Assembly (NCBI RefSeq): GCF_905120355.1
Contig: NZ_CAJHOB010000003.1
Span: 124,001 to 188,000 of the forward strand
Length of the DNA stretch: 64,000 nucleotides
DNA from: Azonexus hydrophilus
GTDB lineage: Bacteria > Pseudomonadota > Gammaproteobacteria > Burkholderiales > Rhodocyclaceae
Reading direction: 5' to 3'
In this document: positions 34,556 to 40,682 of the stretch, piece after piece
Numbering within the stretch: the first letter of the stretch is position 1
How the letters are laid out: every line of letters starts with the position of its first letter
The notes under the pieces: generated by a model
The model's database searches: none
Told to the model about the DNA's origin: nothing
Seen by the model: the letters and a program-made list of their open reading frames with translations, nothing else
Program-made: the position numbers and the translations under genes

Positions 34556-34807
34556 ATGCCGATTTACGAATATCGCTGCGCGGCCTGCGGTGCTCACCAG
34601 GAACACCTGCAGAAAATGAGCGACGCCGCCCTCACCATCTGCCCGCAATGCGGCGCGGAGGCTTATAGCAAACAGCTTTCTGCTGCCGGTTTCCAGCTGA
34701 AAGGCAATGGCTGGTACGCCACCGATTTCAAGGGTGGCAGCAAACCGCCCGCTGCCCCGCCCTGCCAGACCGGCGAAGGTAGCTGCTCTTCCTGCCCGGC
34801 CTCCTGA
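34556..34807 (+). CDS. FmdB-family zinc ribbon protein
   Basis: An 83-residue regulatory-type protein of the FmdB family. The N-terminus MPIYEYRCAACGAHQE and the paired CxxC knuckles (CAAC, CPQC) form a zinc ribbon. The tail is rich in Gly, Pro and Ser with further cysteines (CQTGEGSCSSCPAS). Function is unknown in most bacteria. The start was chosen on the family opening MPIYEY. It leads the operon with DUF502 and aspS, four bases before the next gene. Confidence 0.9.
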   Translation: MPIYEYRCAACGAHQEHLQKMSDAALTICPQCGAEAYSKQLSAAGFQLKGNGWYATDFKGGSKPPAAPPCQTGEGSCSSCPAS

Positions 34808-34811
34808 GGCC

Positions 34812-35432
34812 ATGTTCAAGCGCTACTTCCTCACCGGGCTGCTGATCTGGGTTCCTCTGGTCATCACTTTCTGGGTGCTGTCGCTCATCATCGACACCCT
34901 GGATCAATCGTTGCGCCTGTTGCCCAACGCAGTGCATCCCAAAAACATGCTGGGCTTTGCCCTGCCCGGTGTCGGCGCGCTCTTGACCCTGGCGATGATT
35001 TTTCTTACCGGGCTGCTGGCAACCAATTTCATCGGCCAGAAACTGGTGGACTGGTGGGACAAGCTGCTCTCGCGCATCCCCGTGGTCAATTCGCTGTACA
35101 AGGCCATCAAGCAGGTTTCCGACACGCTGCTGGCCCCCAACGGCAATGCCTTTCGCAAGGCGCTGCTGATTGAATATCCCCGCCGCGATGCATGGACCAT
35201 CGCCTTCCTTACTGGCGGCCCGCCGGGTGGCGACATCGGCAACCATCTGCGCGGCGAGTTTCTCAGCGTGTACGTGCCGACCACCCCCAACCCGACCTCC
35301 GGCTTCTTCCTCATGCTGCCGCGTGCCGACGTAGTCGAGCTCGACATGAGTGTCGATGAGGCGCTGAAATACATCATCTCCATGGGTGTTGTGGCTCCAC
35401 CGCCGCGCCCCGAACTCAAAACTCCTTCCTGA
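34812..35432 (+). CDS. DUF502 family membrane protein
   Basis: A 206-residue inner-membrane protein with two hydrophobic segments (residues about 5-27 and 52-74). The DUF502 signature SRIPVVNSLYKAIKQVSDTLL and the VYVPTTPNPTSGFFLMLPRADV block are present. Function is unknown. The gene is regularly found directly before aspS in betaproteobacteria, as here (15 bases). Confidence 0.9.
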   Translation: MFKRYFLTGLLIWVPLVITFWVLSLIIDTLDQSLRLLPNAVHPKNMLGFALPGVGALLTLAMIFLTGLLATNFIGQKLVDWWDKLLSRIPVVNSLYKAIKQVSDTLLAPNGNAFRKALLIEYPRRDAWTIAFLTGGPPGGDIGNHLRGEFLSVYVPTTPNPTSGFFLMLPRADVVELDMSVDEALKYIISMGVVAPPPRPELKTPS

Positions 35433-35447
35433 ACCCACGGAATTCCC

Positions 35448-37244
35448 ATGCGCACCCATTACTGCGGACAACTCAACGCTTCCCTCGACGGCCAGATGGT
35501 CACCCTGTGTGGCTGGGCCCACCGTCGTCGCGACCACGGCGGCGTCATCTTCATCGACCTGCGTGACCGCGACGGCCTGGCCCAGATCGTCTGCGACCCG
35601 GACCGCGCCGACGCCTTCACCATTGCCGAATCAGTGCGCAACGAGTTCTGCCTGAAGATCACCGGCAAGGTGCGCCCGCGCCCAGCCGGCACCACCAACG
35701 CCAACCTGGCATCCGGCGAGATCGAAGTGCTCTGCCATGAGATCGAAGTGCTCAACCCGTCGGTCACGCCTCCGTTCCAGCTCGATGACGAAAACCTGTC
35801 GGAAAACGTCCGCCTGACGCACCGCGTCATCGACCTGCGCCGGCCGCAGATGCAGAACAACCTGATGCTGCGCTACAAGACGGCGCGGGCCTTCCGCCGC
35901 TTCCTCGACGACAACGGCTTCATCGACATCGAAACGCCGATGCTGACCAAATCGACGCCGGAAGGCGCCCGCGATTACCTGGTGCCGTCGCGCGTGCATG
36001 ACGGCCAGTTCTTCGCCCTGCCGCAATCGCCGCAGCTGTTCAAGCAGCTGCTGATGGTGGCCGGCTTCGATCGCTACTACCAGATCACCAAGTGTTTCCG
36101 CGATGAAGACCTGCGCGCCGACCGCCAGCCGGAATTCACCCAGGTCGATATCGAAACCTCGTTCATGAGTGAAGCCGAGATCACGGCCCTGATGGAACAA
36201 CTGATCCGCCGCGTGTTCAAGGAAGCGATCGACGTCGAGCTGCCGGAATTCCCGCGCATGACCTACGCCGAAGCCATGCGCCGCTTCGGCTCCGACAAGC
36301 CGGACCTGCGCGTCACCCTGGAGCTGGTCGATGTCGCCGACGCCTTCAAGGACGTCGCCTTCAAGGTCTTCGCCAGCATCGCCAACAGCGAAGGCGGCCG
36401 TATCGCCGCCATGCGCATCCCCGGCGGCGCCTCGCTGACCCGCGGCGAAATCGACGAATACACCAAGTTTGTCGGCATCTACGGCGCCAAGGGCCTGGCC
36501 TACATCAAGGTCAATGACGTCACCCAGATCAACGAGACCGGCCTGCAGTCGCCCATCGTCAAGAATCTGTCGGAAGCTTCGCTCAAGACCGTACTCGAAC
36601 GCACCGGCGCCCAGTCCGGCGACCTGATCTTCTTCGGCGCCGACAAGGCCAAGATCGTCAGCGATGCCTTGGGCGCGCTGCGCATCAAGATCGGCCACGA
36701 AAAGGGCTACGTCACCGGCGCCAAGTGGGCGCCGCTGTGGGTCATCGACTTCCCGATGTTCGAATACGACGACGAGTCCAAGCGCTGGACCGCCTGCCAC
36801 CACCCCTTCACCAGCCCGAAGGACGAGCATCTCGAATTCCTGGCGACCGATCCGGGCAAGTGCCTGGCCAAGGCCTACGACCTGGCGTTGAACGGCTGGG
36901 AGCTAGGCGGTGGCTCGGTGCGTATCCACCGCGCCGACGTGCAGGAAAAGGTCTTCGCCGCGCTCAACATCGGCCCGGAAGAGCAACAGGCCAAGTTCGG
37001 CTTCCTGCTCGACGCGCTCAAGTACGGCGCCCCGCCGCACGGTGGCCTGGCCTTCGGTCTGGACCGCATCGTCACCATGATGACCGGCGCCGAGTCGATC
37101 CGCGACGTGATCGCCTTCCCGAAGACGCAGCGCGCCCAGTGTCTGCTCACCGACGCCCCCTCGCCGGTCGATGAAAAGCAGTTGCGCGAACTGCATATCC
37201 GTCTGCGCCAGAAGGCTGACCCGGCCGCCGGCAAGCCCGTCTGA
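35448..37244 (+). CDS. aspS: Aspartyl-tRNA synthetase
   Basis: Class II synthetase of 598 residues. The N-terminal anticodon-binding OB fold ([26 protein letters not shown]), motif 2 ([20 protein letters not shown]), the bacterial GAD insertion (about 290-420) and motif 3 ([13 protein letters not shown]) are all in place. Betaproteobacterial enzymes may be non-discriminating and charge tRNA-Asn as well; this cannot be settled from this window. Confidence 0.97.
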
Positions 37245-37270
37245 ACCCACCCGCCGGCTCCGGTCCGCAA

Positions 37271-37627
37271 ATGCGCCAGTGGTCACGCCTGCTGTTTATC
37301 GTCCTGCTGACGATAGGCAGTGCGCTGGCCTTCTGGAGCACGGGCAACGACCGCGACGGCGTTCACGTCAGCCAACTGCCGGCGGAAGCACGCCATACCC
37401 TCGCCCTGATCAAACAGGGCGGGCCTTTTCCTTACTCGCGCGACGGCATCATCTTCAACAATTTTGAAAAGCGGCTACCGCTGCAACCGCGCGGCTATTA
37501 CCGTGAATACACCGTAAAAACGCCCGGCCGCCGGGATCGCGGCCCACGCCGCATCATTGCCGGCAAGGCCGCCGAGTATTACTACACGGAAGACCACTAC
37601 GCTTCCTTTCGCCGCATCCGCGAATAA
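37271..37627 (+). CDS. Exported guanyl-specific ribonuclease (RNase Sa/barnase family)
   Basis: A 118-residue microbial ribonuclease. An N-terminal hydrophobic segment (residues 5-22) exports or anchors it. The catalytic core closely resembles RNase Sa: PFPYSRDGIIFNNFEKRLP, YYREYTVKTPG, RGPRRIIAG and YYTEDHYASFRRI. Glu79, Arg90/Arg94 and His109 sit with the spacing of Glu54, Arg65/Arg69 and His85 of RNase Sa, so the active site looks intact. The next gene encodes a barstar-type inhibitor, which would protect the cytoplasm. It starts 26 bases after aspS, in the same operon. Confidence 0.92.
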   Translation: MRQWSRLLFIVLLTIGSALAFWSTGNDRDGVHVSQLPAEARHTLALIKQGGPFPYSRDGIIFNNFEKRLPLQPRGYYREYTVKTPGRRDRGPRRIIAGKAAEYYYTEDHYASFRRIRE

Positions 37628-37648
37628 AGGGAGGCTCGCGAGCGCACC

Positions 37649-38014
37649 ATGTCTGATCTTCTCCGTAATGGCGTTTTCCCCCTCCCGGCCACCCTGCCGG
37701 CAGAGTGCCACTGCCTTGACCTCAGCGGCAGCCACACACCAAGCGAACTCCTGCAGCGCATCGGTACCGCCCTCGGCTTCCCGGAGTGGTACGACGCCAA
37801 TTTCGATGCCTTGTTCGACTGTCTGATCGATGCGGCAAACATCGACTGCCTTGCCTTGACCGGACTTGAAGCTTTCGCTGCCGCGCAGGCCGAGGCATTT
37901 AGCACGCTGCATCTGGTCCTGGCCGCCGTCTGCGACGTACGCGGCGAACTCGGGCAACCGGTCTGTTTCTATCTTGCCGGCCTGAGTGAAGGCCGCACAC
38001 ATGCCGGTGGATGA
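37649..38014 (+). CDS. Barstar-family ribonuclease inhibitor
   Basis: A 121-residue barstar-like protein. The segment GFPEWYDANFDALFDCLID matches the barstar helix that blocks the RNase active site, with Asp53 and Asp57 in the places of barstar Asp35 and Asp39. Unlike most barstars it has about 20 extra residues at the N-terminus and four cysteines. It lies 21 bases after the RNase gene, and its stop overlaps the nudB start, so it is co-expressed with both. Confidence 0.9.
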   Translation: MSDLLRNGVFPLPATLPAECHCLDLSGSHTPSELLQRIGTALGFPEWYDANFDALFDCLIDAANIDCLALTGLEAFAAAQAEAFSTLHLVLAAVCDVRGELGQPVCFYLAGLSEGRTHAGG

Positions 38015-38478
38015 TGCCGGCCTACAAACAGCCTCGCTCGGTTCTGGTCGTCATCCACACCCTGGCGGGCGAAGTGCTACTCCTGGAACGCGCCCGCCAC
38101 CCAGGTTTCTGGCAATCGGTCACCGGTAGCCGGGAAAACGGCGAAAGCGCCCGCACCACCGCCTGGCGCGAAGTACGCGAGGAAACCGGGCTGGACTTTC
38201 CGCCCATGGCCTTGCAGGACTGGCACATTGAAAACACCTTCAGCCTGCACCCGGCCTGGCGCCATCGTTACGCACCGGACGTCACGCACAACTGCGAACG
38301 GGTCTTTGCCCTGCCCCTGCCTGAACGTCTTCCCGTGCGTCTCGCCCCGGAAGAACACCGTGCCTACGCCTGGCTTTCCTGGCAGGAGGCTGCGGCACGC
38401 TGTTTCTCCTGGAGCAATCGCGACGCGATCCTGCTTCTGGAGAAACAGCTTCAGACTCAACGCACGCAGTCGACGTAA
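38011..38478 (+). CDS. nudB: Dihydroneopterin triphosphate diphosphatase (Nudix)
   Basis: A Nudix hydrolase removing pyrophosphate from dihydroneopterin triphosphate in folate synthesis. It has 155 residues. The Nudix box begins at GSRENGESARTTAWREV and carries REVREETG. The C-terminal LSWQEAAARCFSWSNRDAI is typical of NudB. It overlaps the barstar stop by four bases and ends 22 bases inside the convergent decarboxylase. Confidence 0.88.
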   Translation: MMPAYKQPRSVLVVIHTLAGEVLLLERARHPGFWQSVTGSRENGESARTTAWREVREETGLDFPPMALQDWHIENTFSLHPAWRHRYAPDVTHNCERVFALPLPERLPVRLAPEEHRAYAWLSWQEAAARCFSWSNRDAILLLEKQLQTQRTQST

Positions 38479-40682
38479 TACTCGCCGTCTTCGCGCTTGA
38501 CGAGCCCGTGGATGTCGGTCTCGAAGCCGGGGAAACGGGCGTTGAAATCACGCGCGAACTTGAGGTAGCGAACAATCGTGGCATTGAAACGCTCGCCCGG
38601 AATCAGCAGCGGGATACCCGGCGGATAGGGCGTCAGCAGCACCGAGGTAATGCGTCCTTCCAGTTCGTCCAGGCGCACCCGCTCGATTTCGCGGTGTGCC
38701 ATGCGGGCAAAGGCATCCGCCGGACGCATCGCCGGCACCATGTCCGACAGGTACATCTCGGTAGTCAGCCGGGCCACGTCGTTTTCCTTGTACACCGCGT
38801 GAATCTGCTTGCACAGGTCTTTCAGGCCCATGCGCTCGTAGCGCGGGTTTTTTTGCACGAACTCGGGCAGCACCTTCCACAGCGGCTGATTCTTGTCGTA
38901 GTCGTCCTTGAACTGCTGCAGTGCGGTGACCAGCGTGTTCCAGCGCCCCTTGGTGATGCCGATGGTGAACATGATGAAGAAGCTGTACAGGCCGCACTTC
39001 TCGACGATGACCCCGTGCTCGGCCAGATACTTGGTGACGATCGCCGCCGGAATGCCGCGCTCGCCGAAATCGCCATCGACATCCAGCCCCGGGGTGATGA
39101 TGGTGGCCTTGATCGGGTCGAGCATGTTGAAGCCATCGGCCAGCTTGCCGAAGCCGTGCCAGCGGTGGCCGGGCTTGAGCATCCAGGCATCGCGTTCCTC
39201 GATCCCTTCTTCCGACAGATCATCCGGCCCCCAGACCTTGAACCACCAGTCGGTGCCCCACTCCTCATCCACCTTGCGCATGGCGCGGCGGAAATCCAGT
39301 GCTTCGGCAATCGATTCCTCGACCAGTGCGGTGCCGCCCGGCGCCTCCATCATCGCCGCCGCCACATCGCACGAGGCGATGATGGAATACTGCGGCGAAG
39401 TGGACGTATGCATCAGGTAGGCTTCATTGAACGCATCGCGGTCAAGCTGTCGCCCCTCGCAATCCTGCACCAGAATCTGCGACGCCTGCGACAGTCCGGC
39501 CAGCAATTTGTGCGTGGACTGGGTGGCGAAGATCATTGATTCCTTGCAGCGCTGCCGGTCGGCGCCAATGGCGTGGTAATCGCCATAAAAGTCGTGGAAA
39601 GCCGCGTGCGGCAGCCACGCTTCGTCGAAGTGCAGGGTGTCGATGCGGCCATCGAGCATTTCCTTGATGTCCTCGACGTTGTAGAGCACGCCGTCGTAGG
39701 TGGACTGGGTGATCGTCAGCACGCGCGGCTTGGCCGATTTGTCTTCGATGAAGGGATTGGCGTCGATTTTCTTCTGGATGCTTTCCCAGGCGAACTCGCT
39801 TTTCGGAATCGGGCCGATGATGCCGAAGTTGTTGCGCGTCGGCATCAGAAAAACGGGAATCGCCCCGGTCATGATGATCGAGTGCAGGATCGATTTGTGG
39901 CAGTTACGATCCACCACCACGATATCACCTGGCGCCACGGTCGAATGCCAGACGATCTTGTTCGAGGTCGAGGTGCCGTTGGTGACGAAGTAGAGGTGGT
40001 CACAATTGAAGATGCGCGCCGCATTGCGCTCGGAAGCCGCAACCGGCCCGGTGTGATCGAGCAACTGCCCCAGCTCTTCCACCGCATTGCAGACATCGGC
40101 GCGCAACATGTTCTCGCCGAAGAACTGATGGAACATCTGGCCGACAGGCGACTTCAGGAACGCGACGCCGCCGGAGTGGCCGGGACAGTGCCAGGAGTAG
40201 GAGCCGTCCGCCGCATACTGGGTCAACGCCCGGAAGAAGGGAGGCGGCAGCGAATCGACGTAGGCCGTCGCTTCGCGCTTGATGCTGCGGGCGATGAACT
40301 CCGGCGTATCCTCGTGCATGTGGATGAAACCGTGCAGTTCGCGCAGGATGTCGTTCGGAATGTGGCGCGAGGTGCGCGTCTCGCCGTGCAGGAAAATCGG
40401 AATCTCCGCATTCTTGCGGCGAATTTCCATTACGAAAGCACGCAGTTCGGCCAGGGTTTCTTCCGGCTCGAGCGCCAGCTCCTCGTCGTCGATCGACAGG
40501 ATGAAGGCGGAGGCCCGACTCTGCTGCTGGGCAAACGAAGTCAGATCACCATAGCTGGTCACCCCCAGCACTTCCAGCCCTTCTTTCTGAATCGCTTCCG
40601 CCAGGGCACGGATGCCAAGCCCGGAAGCATTCTCGGAGCGAAAATCTTCATCAATGATGATGACAGGAAAGTGAAAGCGCAT
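38457..40682 (-). CDS. Orn/Lys/Arg decarboxylase (PLP-dependent, inducible type)
   Basis: Large fold-type I PLP enzyme decarboxylating arginine, lysine or ornithine. It has 741 residues, the size of CadA/AdiA/SpeF enzymes. The N-terminal wing domain (residues 1-125) is receiver-like. The PLP lysine is Lys392 in TQSTHKLLAGLSQ, preceded by FDEAWLPHAAFHDFYG. LLTPYPPGIPLLIPGE is at the C-terminus. Substrate cannot be fixed from sequence. No cognate antiporter lies beside it, which argues against a simple acid-resistance pair. Its 3' end overlaps nudB. Confidence 0.92.
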   Translation of the reverse strand: MRFHFPVIIIDEDFRSENASGLGIRALAEAIQKEGLEVLGVTSYGDLTSFAQQQSRASAFILSIDDEELALEPEETLAELRAFVMEIRRKNAEIPIFLHGETRTSRHIPNDILRELHGFIHMHEDTPEFIARSIKREATAYVDSLPPPFFRALTQYAADGSYSWHCPGHSGGVAFLKSPVGQMFHQFFGENMLRADVCNAVEELGQLLDHTGPVAASERNAARIFNCDHLYFVTNGTSTSNKIVWHSTVAPGDIVVVDRNCHKSILHSIIMTGAIPVFLMPTRNNFGIIGPIPKSEFAWESIQKKIDANPFIEDKSAKPRVLTITQSTYDGVLYNVEDIKEMLDGRIDTLHFDEAWLPHAAFHDFYGDYHAIGADRQRCKESMIFATQSTHKLLAGLSQASQILVQDCEGRQLDRDAFNEAYLMHTSTSPQYSIIASCDVAAAMMEAPGGTALVEESIAEALDFRRAMRKVDEEWGTDWWFKVWGPDDLSEEGIEERDAWMLKPGHRWHGFGKLADGFNMLDPIKATIITPGLDVDGDFGERGIPAAIVTKYLAEHGVIVEKCGLYSFFIMFTIGITKGRWNTLVTALQQFKDDYDKNQPLWKVLPEFVQKNPRYERMGLKDLCKQIHAVYKENDVARLTTEMYLSDMVPAMRPADAFARMAHREIERVRLDELEGRITSVLLTPYPPGIPLLIPGERFNATIVRYLKFARDFNARFPGFETDIHGLVKREDGEYYVDCVR

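What the first reader, a model, noticed from the sequence alone, without database searches (positions are those of the whole stretch)
37271..38014. RNase Sa/barnase-like toxin and barstar-type inhibitor embedded in the aspS operon
The RNase keeps Glu79, Arg90/94 and His109 in register with RNase Sa and has an export segment; the barstar keeps the two Asp residues that plug the active site. The pair sits between an essential tRNA synthetase and nudB with overlaps or gaps under 30 bases. Such pairs usually act in defence, competition or nutrient use. Tying one to aspS is unexpected and hints at growth-linked expression or a role in the cell's own RNA handling.
Basis: partly seen in the sequence, partly recalled or inferred. 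Interest (0 to 1): 0.6.

Follow-up and report, generated by a model that had tools for sequence, protein, structure and literature searches.

The report
Exported RNase with barstar inhibitor
A small exported RNA-cutting enzyme and the inhibitor that keeps it from harming its own cell sit inside a housekeeping gene cluster, and this arrangement is a widely shared feature of beta-proteobacteria rather than a local oddity.

Summary
Window 37271-37627 encodes an RNase Sa-type guanyl-specific RNase (PF00545, E 3e-24) with an export segment and all catalytic residues; 37649-38014 encodes a barstar (PF01337, E 4.6e-13; its model matches barstar). The pair lies between aspS and nudB with gaps of 26 and 21 bases and a 4-base overlap. 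The RNase is in 159 of 199 genomes of the family and 116 of 300 of the order, nearly always once. None of these lacks a barstar, while 9 and 55 further genomes have barstar alone. A same-strand barstar lies just downstream in 117 of 120 fetched neighbourhoods; two of the three exceptions are catalytically dead copies. aspS and/or nudB flank the pair in 65 of 120, in 8 of 25 families, so the 'unexpected' link is a conserved setting. Best reading: an exported RNase, guarded in the cytosol by barstar and perhaps co-transcribed with aspS, that breaks down RNA in the envelope or outside. That task is inferred. A role in the cell's own RNA handling is disfavoured. It is a new member of a known kind, in a setting that our paper searches did not find described.

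The parts
35448..37244 (+). aspS, aspartyl-tRNA synthetase; upstream gene of the cluster
   Evidence: PF00152 E 9e-124, GAD and OB-fold domains
37271..37627 (+). exported guanyl-specific ribonuclease, RNase Sa type (N1/T1 family); predicted signal peptide about residues 1-20; catalytic Glu79, Arg90, Arg94, His109; guanine-site Asn64, Glu66
   Evidence: PF00545 E 3e-24; RNase Sa3/Sa2/Sa E about 1e-28; Foldseek RNase Sa; the six residues conserved in 117-120 of 120 loci, window included
37649..38014 (+). barstar-family inhibitor; no export segment seen by eye (cytoplasmic by inference); Asp35 and Asp39 equivalents present
   Evidence: PF01337 E 4.6e-13; AlphaFold pLDDT 90.5; Foldseek barstar
38011..38478 (+). 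nudB, dihydroneopterin triphosphate diphosphatase (folate pathway); overlaps the barstar gene by 4 bases
   Evidence: NF006961 equivalog 202.6 bits, cut-off 103
34707..35432 (+). DUF502 gene upstream of aspS, part of the conserved gene order; the true start may lie further in
   Evidence: PF04367 E 1e-36; found in 53 of 120 neighbourhoods

Best explanation
The pair is an exported guanyl-specific RNase and its cytoplasmic barstar safeguard. The RNase is made with a Sec signal peptide, moves to the periplasm (or beyond), and there cleaves RNA after G with Glu79 and His109 as acid-base pair and Arg90/Arg94 holding the phosphate. Barstar, translated from the next cistron, stays in the cytosol and plugs the active site of any RNase that folds before export. 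The physiological task most likely is breaking down RNA in the envelope or outside the cell (nucleotide, phosphate and debris turnover), the job that RNase I of the T2 family does in E. coli (recalled). Packing behind aspS most likely gives steady, growth-coupled expression. Shown by computation: fold family, intact active site, pairing with barstar, conserved gene order. Inferred: export, inhibition, co-transcription and task.
For: Fold and residues: RNase; barstar. PDB entry 1ay7 holds RNase Sa (chain A) and barstar (chain B). One-way dependence: both 159, RNase alone 0, barstar alone 9, neither 31 of 199 family genomes; 116, 0, 55, 129 of 300 order genomes. Same-strand barstar just downstream in 117 of 120 fetched neighbourhoods and in 79 of 80 named loci, the 80th (L264) ending about 100 bases past its RNase match. 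Natural control: the second copies L141 and L146 carry Ala for Glu79 and Tyr for His109 and have no barstar in their 10 kb. Export: hydrophobic N-terminal segment in 114 of 120; strict lipobox in 5 of 39 own-family loci; Cys97/Cys103 equivalents both in 29, neither in 91, one alone in 0 of 120. Resident gene: 55 of 60 genomes of the genus (40 of 41 good ones), nearly always one copy. RNase T2 in only 19 of 300 order genomes, together with this RNase in 3 against 7.3 expected (p 0.049). RNase-lacking family genomes are smaller: median 2.6 Mb (16 genomes, from the 20 of 40 that were listed) against 3.9 Mb (136 genomes), p 1e-5.
Against: No experiment. Barstar evolves fast (mean identity 0.36 over 49 loci, against 0.55 for the RNase and 0.76 for AspS), which also fits an arms race. 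The T2 and genome-size comparisons ignore shared ancestry, and the first is borderline. One intact-looking RNase (L151, barnase type) has no barstar in its 10 kb, although its genome G522 has two elsewhere. The window's own barstar is divergent (Asp where 116 of 117 have Gly31). A few plasmids carry relatives: 15 of 72,556 records, 6 of them conjugative. Terminator-like sites lie within the pair. Neither co-transcription nor signal cleavage was tested.
Confidence: 0.6

Rival explanations
1. Competition: the exported RNase is a toxin against neighbouring bacteria, and barstar is the immunity protein. Fast barstar divergence would reflect changing specificity.
For: One-way dependence of RNase on barstar; barstar far more divergent than the RNase (41% mean pairwise among 29 congeners); barnase and barstar domains are used in polymorphic toxin systems (PMC3482391, passages); a few relatives on conjugative plasmids.
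Against: A single small domain with no delivery module in the same protein; catalytic residues kept in 117-120 of 120; nearly always one copy, in the own family mostly in one place (aspS and/or nudB beside it in 38 of 40); some relatives carry a strict lipobox and so would be tethered; no match in the phage collection.
Confidence: 0.2
2. Action on the cell's own RNA: RNase and barstar act in the cytosol as a type II-like toxin-antitoxin or RNA-processing pair tuned through aspS.
For: Position 26 bases behind aspS; aspS and/or nudB beside the pair in 65 of 120 loci; tight spacing.
Against: Hydrophobic N-terminal segment in 114 of 120 and coupled cysteines in 29; no aspS or nudB beside the pair in 17 of 25 families, with varied neighbours where tested; in 5 of 26 aspS loci of RNase-lacking relatives the pair is gone and nudB follows aspS closely.
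Confidence: 0.08
3. The pair is a passenger in the aspS cluster with little present use (relaxed or decaying), in which barstar cannot be lost before the RNase.
For: High pN/pS for RNase (0.25-0.67) and barstar (0.33-0.99) in the 14 closest pairs printed, against 0.04-0.18 for AspS; of 26 aspS loci of RNase-lacking relatives 7 keep barstar alone and 5 have lost both with nudB close behind aspS; divergent window barstar.
Against: Catalytic residues kept in 117-120 of 120; 40 of 41 good congeners have the RNase; NudB has pN/pS 0.21-0.53 in the same pairs.
Confidence: 0.1

Closest known systems
RNase Sa, Sa2, Sa3 of Streptomyces (N1/T1 family, PF00545)
   Same: Same fold, 46-59% identity in the structural alignments, same catalytic and guanine-site residues; the 26 actinomycete loci examined also have barstar just downstream
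   Different: The window protein has no cysteine; RNase Sa has a disulfide (recalled). Here a beta-proteobacterial host and, in many relatives, an aspS-nudB setting, seen in 0 of those 26 actinomycete loci
Barnase and barstar of Bacillus amyloliquefaciens
   Same: Exported RNase with an intracellular inhibitor; the inhibitor keeps Asp35/Asp39 and the barstar fold
   Different: Barnase is a more distant branch of the family (E 0.05 or worse for barnase chains; TM(target) about 0.37-0.51), and PMC5021464 (abstract and passages) treats RNase and inhibitor in one operon as unlike barnase and binase
Balifase and its inhibitor YrdF, Bacillus licheniformis (PMC5021464)
   Same: RNase and barstar-type inhibitor genes in one operon (abstract and passages)
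   Different: That paper reports synthesis induced by phosphate starvation; here the pair sits behind a tRNA synthetase gene, and phosphate control was not tested
Tox-Barnase / Imm-Barstar of polymorphic toxin systems (PMC3482391)
   Same: Same toxin and immunity domains, toxin gene first and immunity gene second; the paper mentions widely distributed simple barnase-barstar pairs and lists beta-proteobacteria (passages)
   Different: No large delivery protein here; kept in one setting in most of the own family
RNase I of Escherichia coli (RNase T2 family)
   Same: Proposed analogue: periplasmic RNase that breaks down RNA outside the cytosol (recalled)
   Different: Different Pfam family; PF00445 in only 19 of 300 genomes of this order

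Membership tests
N1/T1 guanyl-specific ribonuclease (PF00545) | Profile match over the curated cut-off | tested here: met
   85.8 bits, cut-off 24
N1/T1 guanyl-specific ribonuclease (PF00545) | Catalytic Glu, two Arg, His and guanine-site Asn/Glu (roles recalled) | tested here: met
   Glu79, Arg90, Arg94, His109, Asn64, Glu66
N1/T1 guanyl-specific ribonuclease (PF00545) | Fold of RNase Sa | tested here: met
   Foldseek E 3e-12, rmsd 0.8 to RNase Sa2
N1/T1 guanyl-specific ribonuclease (PF00545) | Cleavage of RNA after G | not testable with these tools
   needs an enzyme assay
Barstar (PF01337) | Profile match over the curated cut-off and barstar fold | tested here: met
   49.4 bits, cut-off 23.4; top 29 Foldseek hits are barstars, best E 1e-3
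Barstar (PF01337) | Asp35 and Asp39 that enter the RNase active site | tested here: met
   both Asp in the window; Asp35 in 116 of 117; position 39 Asp in 101 and Glu in 16 of 117
Barstar (PF01337) | Tight inhibition of the cognate RNase | not testable with these tools
   complex not predicted; genomic dependence only
Polymorphic toxin system | Large secreted carrier with repeats or trafficking domains and exchangeable toxin tips | tested here: not met
   118-aa protein with one Pfam domain and an N-terminal hydrophobic segment
Type II toxin-antitoxin system | Both partners act in the cytosol | tested here: inconclusive
   export segment in the RNase speaks against it, by sequence only
Known anti-phage defence system | Match to PADLOC models | tested here: not met
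   0 families for both proteins at E 0.01

The most novel reading that the evidence does not exclude
Beta-proteobacteria have a core, growth-coupled envelope RNase: an RNase Sa-type enzyme written into the aspS-nudB cluster that takes the place of the largely missing RNase I, with cytosolic barstar as a built-in safeguard of its export. Expression would follow translation capacity instead of phosphate starvation as reported for Bacillus balifase and binase.
Probability: 0.3. Interest if true: 0.55.

Novelty: new member of a known kind. Interest (0 to 1): 0.4.

Why it matters
Barnase and barstar are textbook proteins known mainly from Gram-positive bacteria, and their relatives are often treated as tools of conflict. 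Here the pair looks like a resident gene pair of a large Gram-negative group, often in one place behind a tRNA synthetase gene. If confirmed it gives a simple system for asking what exported RNases do for their owners, how a lethal enzyme is passed safely through the cytosol, and whether it is expressed with the translation machinery.

Tried and rejected
Mobile or defence cassette: not favoured; no match in the phage collection, 15 of 72,556 plasmid records (6 conjugative, 2 mobilizable, 7 not; they include enterobacterial plasmids at E 3e-7), no PADLOC match, nearly always one copy.

aspS as a required partner: not supported; 55 of 120 neighbourhoods hold neither aspS nor nudB, and the flanking genes tested there include patatin, malic enzyme/PTA, a symporter, threonine synthase and others.

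Distance agreement as a test of vertical descent: weak. Spearman with AspS distance 0.19 for RNase, 0.18 for barstar, 0.39 for NudB, 0.27 for DUF502 over 49 loci; 5, 7, 0 and 1 of 500 permutations as high. A tree of 113 RNases (7 of 120 dropped as divergent or dead: L141, L146-L151) has few resolved forks (7 of 110 inner branches starred); the 'linked' label needs 13 changes against 36.5 in shuffles. So old shared descent of the setting is likely, not proven.

Phosphate control was not tested. Complex prediction was not possible: the structure tool takes single proteins. The paper searches were made; only pairs aspS with barstar (one paper, on a Bacillus proteome, listing only).

Rows dropped or partial sets: the 120 neighbourhoods are 40 of the own family (159 positive genomes; window included) and 80 of the 109 order matches outside it, picked by me from the lists. 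Locus L161 (10 bases, fetched by mistake) was dropped and a window segment used for the own genome. Loci L002-L012 of the class search were looked at only. 29 of the 40 RNase-lacking family genomes were given; 26 gave an aspS locus. In one search L159 was left out. 'order ok' tests presence of the four genes in the locus, not their spacing. Searches stopped with script errors after partial output; conservation counts come, export counts. The lipobox class is loose (19 of 120); one search is the strict count. Families are the unnamed codes.

Full report
WHAT IS THERE. Between aspS (35448-37244) and nudB (38011-38478) lie two ORFs on the + strand: 37271-37627 (118 aa) and 37649-38014 (121 aa). 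The spacings are 26 bases, 21 bases and a 4-base overlap. The first matches PF00545 (E 3e-24), the second PF01337 (E 4.6e-13); nudB meets its NCBIfam equivalog. By sequence the RNase is closest in the PDB to RNase Sa3, Sa2 and Sa (E about 1e-28), barnase chains being far weaker (E 0.05 or worse). Its model (pLDDT 85.5; first 30 residues 52-59) superposes on RNase Sa2 with rmsd 0.8. The barstar matches solved barstar only weakly by sequence (E 0.016), but its model (pLDDT 90.5) has barstars as its 29 best hits among solved structures, the best at E 1e-3.

ACTIVE SITE AND INTERFACE. Over 120 loci (window included) Asn64 is kept in 120, Glu66 in 117, Glu79 in 118, Arg90 in 119, Arg94 in 120, His109 in 118. 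Over 117 barstars position 35 is Asp in 116, position 39 Asp in 101 and Glu in 16; Pro27 and Asn33 are kept in all 117. The window's barstar has Asp where the other 116 have Gly31.

EXPORT. The window RNase begins MRQWSRLLFIVLLTIGSALA|F, a plausible Sec signal peptide. A hydrophobic N-terminal segment was found in 114 of 120 loci. A strict lipobox occurs in 5 of 39 own-family loci and 9 of 30 in the best-scoring own-family set, but in 0 of 30 loci of the window's genus, so tethering is a trait of some relatives only. Two cysteines at positions 97 and 103 occur together in 29 of 120 and singly in none, as expected of a disulfide formed outside the cytosol; the window protein has neither. The barstar shows no such segment by eye.

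HOW COMMON. The RNase is in the own genome once, in 55 of 60 genomes of the genus by protein search (40 of 41 good genomes), and by PF00545 in 159 of 199 of the family, 116 of 300 of the order and 12 of 274 of the class. It is nearly always a single copy. The nearest named relatives are Azonexus (73% identity) and Dechloromonas (64%); that the window is from Rhodocyclales is my inference.

ALWAYS WITH BARSTAR. In the family: both 159, RNase alone 0, barstar alone 9, neither 31 of 199. In the order: 116, 0, 55, 129 of 300. In fetched neighbourhoods barstar lies just downstream on the same strand in 117 of 120. The three exceptions are L141 and L146, second copies with Ala for Glu79 and Tyr for His109, and L151, a barnase-type RNase that looks intact; its genome (G522) has two barstars elsewhere. 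Among 80 named loci from Betaproteobacteria, Actinomycetes and a few other classes 79 have barstar downstream, and L264 ends about 100 bases past its RNase match. This one-way dependence is what an inhibitor that protects the producer predicts.

THE aspS LINK. aspS and/or nudB are beside the pair in 65 of 120 neighbourhoods, in 8 of 25 families (f1, f177, f182, f184, f195, f201, f209, f217). By my reading of the distances, 47 of 120 (26 of 40 in the own family) have aspS, RNase, barstar and nudB with nothing large between. In 9 own-family loci about 1.8 kb lies between aspS and RNase; two of these were tested and hold a response-regulator/TPR gene. All 30 fetched loci of the genus hold the four genes. 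Of 26 aspS loci in RNase-lacking relatives, 7 keep barstar between aspS and nudB, 5 have nudB within about 100 bases of aspS with the pair gone, and 14 show neither within reach, two of them cut by contig ends. Among the named loci 26 of 80 have the link, all in Betaproteobacteria or unplaced Pseudomonadota; 0 of 26 actinomycete loci have it. So the setting is shared by part of the Betaproteobacteria and was lost, or never formed, in others. Elsewhere the neighbours tested vary. A simple scan of 34600-38700 finds no + strand promoter-like site, and three + strand terminator-like sites inside the RNase and barstar genes, 7 in all against 4.0 in shuffles; co-transcription with aspS is therefore an inference from spacing.

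EVOLUTION. Over 49 loci with all five genes mean identities are AspS 0.76, DUF502 0.62, NudB 0.58, RNase 0.55, barstar 0.36. In the genus 29 barstars average 41% with each other and 33% with the window's. Fast change of the inhibitor fits a loosely constrained safeguard, a conflict, or relaxed selection. Genomes lacking the RNase are smaller (median 2.6 Mb, 16 genomes, against 3.9 Mb, 136 genomes; only 20 of the 40 RNase-lacking genomes were listed), uncorrected for shared ancestry.

TASK. I favour RNA breakdown in the envelope or outside. For: resident single gene, no delivery part in the protein, nearly invariant catalytic residues, and scarcity of the RNase I family (19 of 300), whose overlap with this RNase is below expectation though barely (3 against 7.3, p 0.049). 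Against: no direct evidence, fast barstar change, and a few plasmid-borne relatives (15 of 72,556 records, 6 conjugative). PMC5021464 (abstract and passages) reports that balifase synthesis in Bacillus licheniformis rises under phosphate starvation and treats RNase and inhibitor in one operon as a unique feature of balifase. PMC3482391 (passages) mentions simple barnase-barstar pairs and lists beta-proteobacteria. Eight searches listed no paper that I recognised as being on the aspS setting; only asked for it by name, and the library lacks most subscription journals.

VERDICT. The thing is a known kind of pair in a conserved setting that these searches did not find described. A function in the cell's own RNA handling is unlikely; growth-coupled expression is plausible and testable.

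Noticed in passing
L342:661-1497 (-): In one congener barstar and NudB form a single open reading frame (279 aa stop to stop), an apparent fusion; sequencing error not excluded.
   Followed up: partly
L141:4845-5696 (-) and L146:4642-5145 (+): Second RNase copies with Ala for Glu79 and Tyr for His109, lipoprotein-like N-termini and no barstar in their 10 kb: apparently dead members of an RNase fold that may have another job.
   Followed up: partly
L160:5349-7058 (-) and L172:5265-6974 (-): A response-regulator/TPR gene lies between aspS and the RNase; 9 own-family loci have a similar spacing, Pfam was run on these two only.
   Followed up: partly
window 38457-38478: nudB and the convergent Orn/Lys/Arg decarboxylase gene (38457-40682, - strand) overlap by 22 bases at their 3' ends.
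   Followed up: no
window 37649-38014: The window's barstar is one of the weakest PF01337 matches of the family (E 8.7e-13; most others 1e-15 or better) and has Asp in place of a Gly kept in the 116 other barstars aligned.
   Followed up: partly
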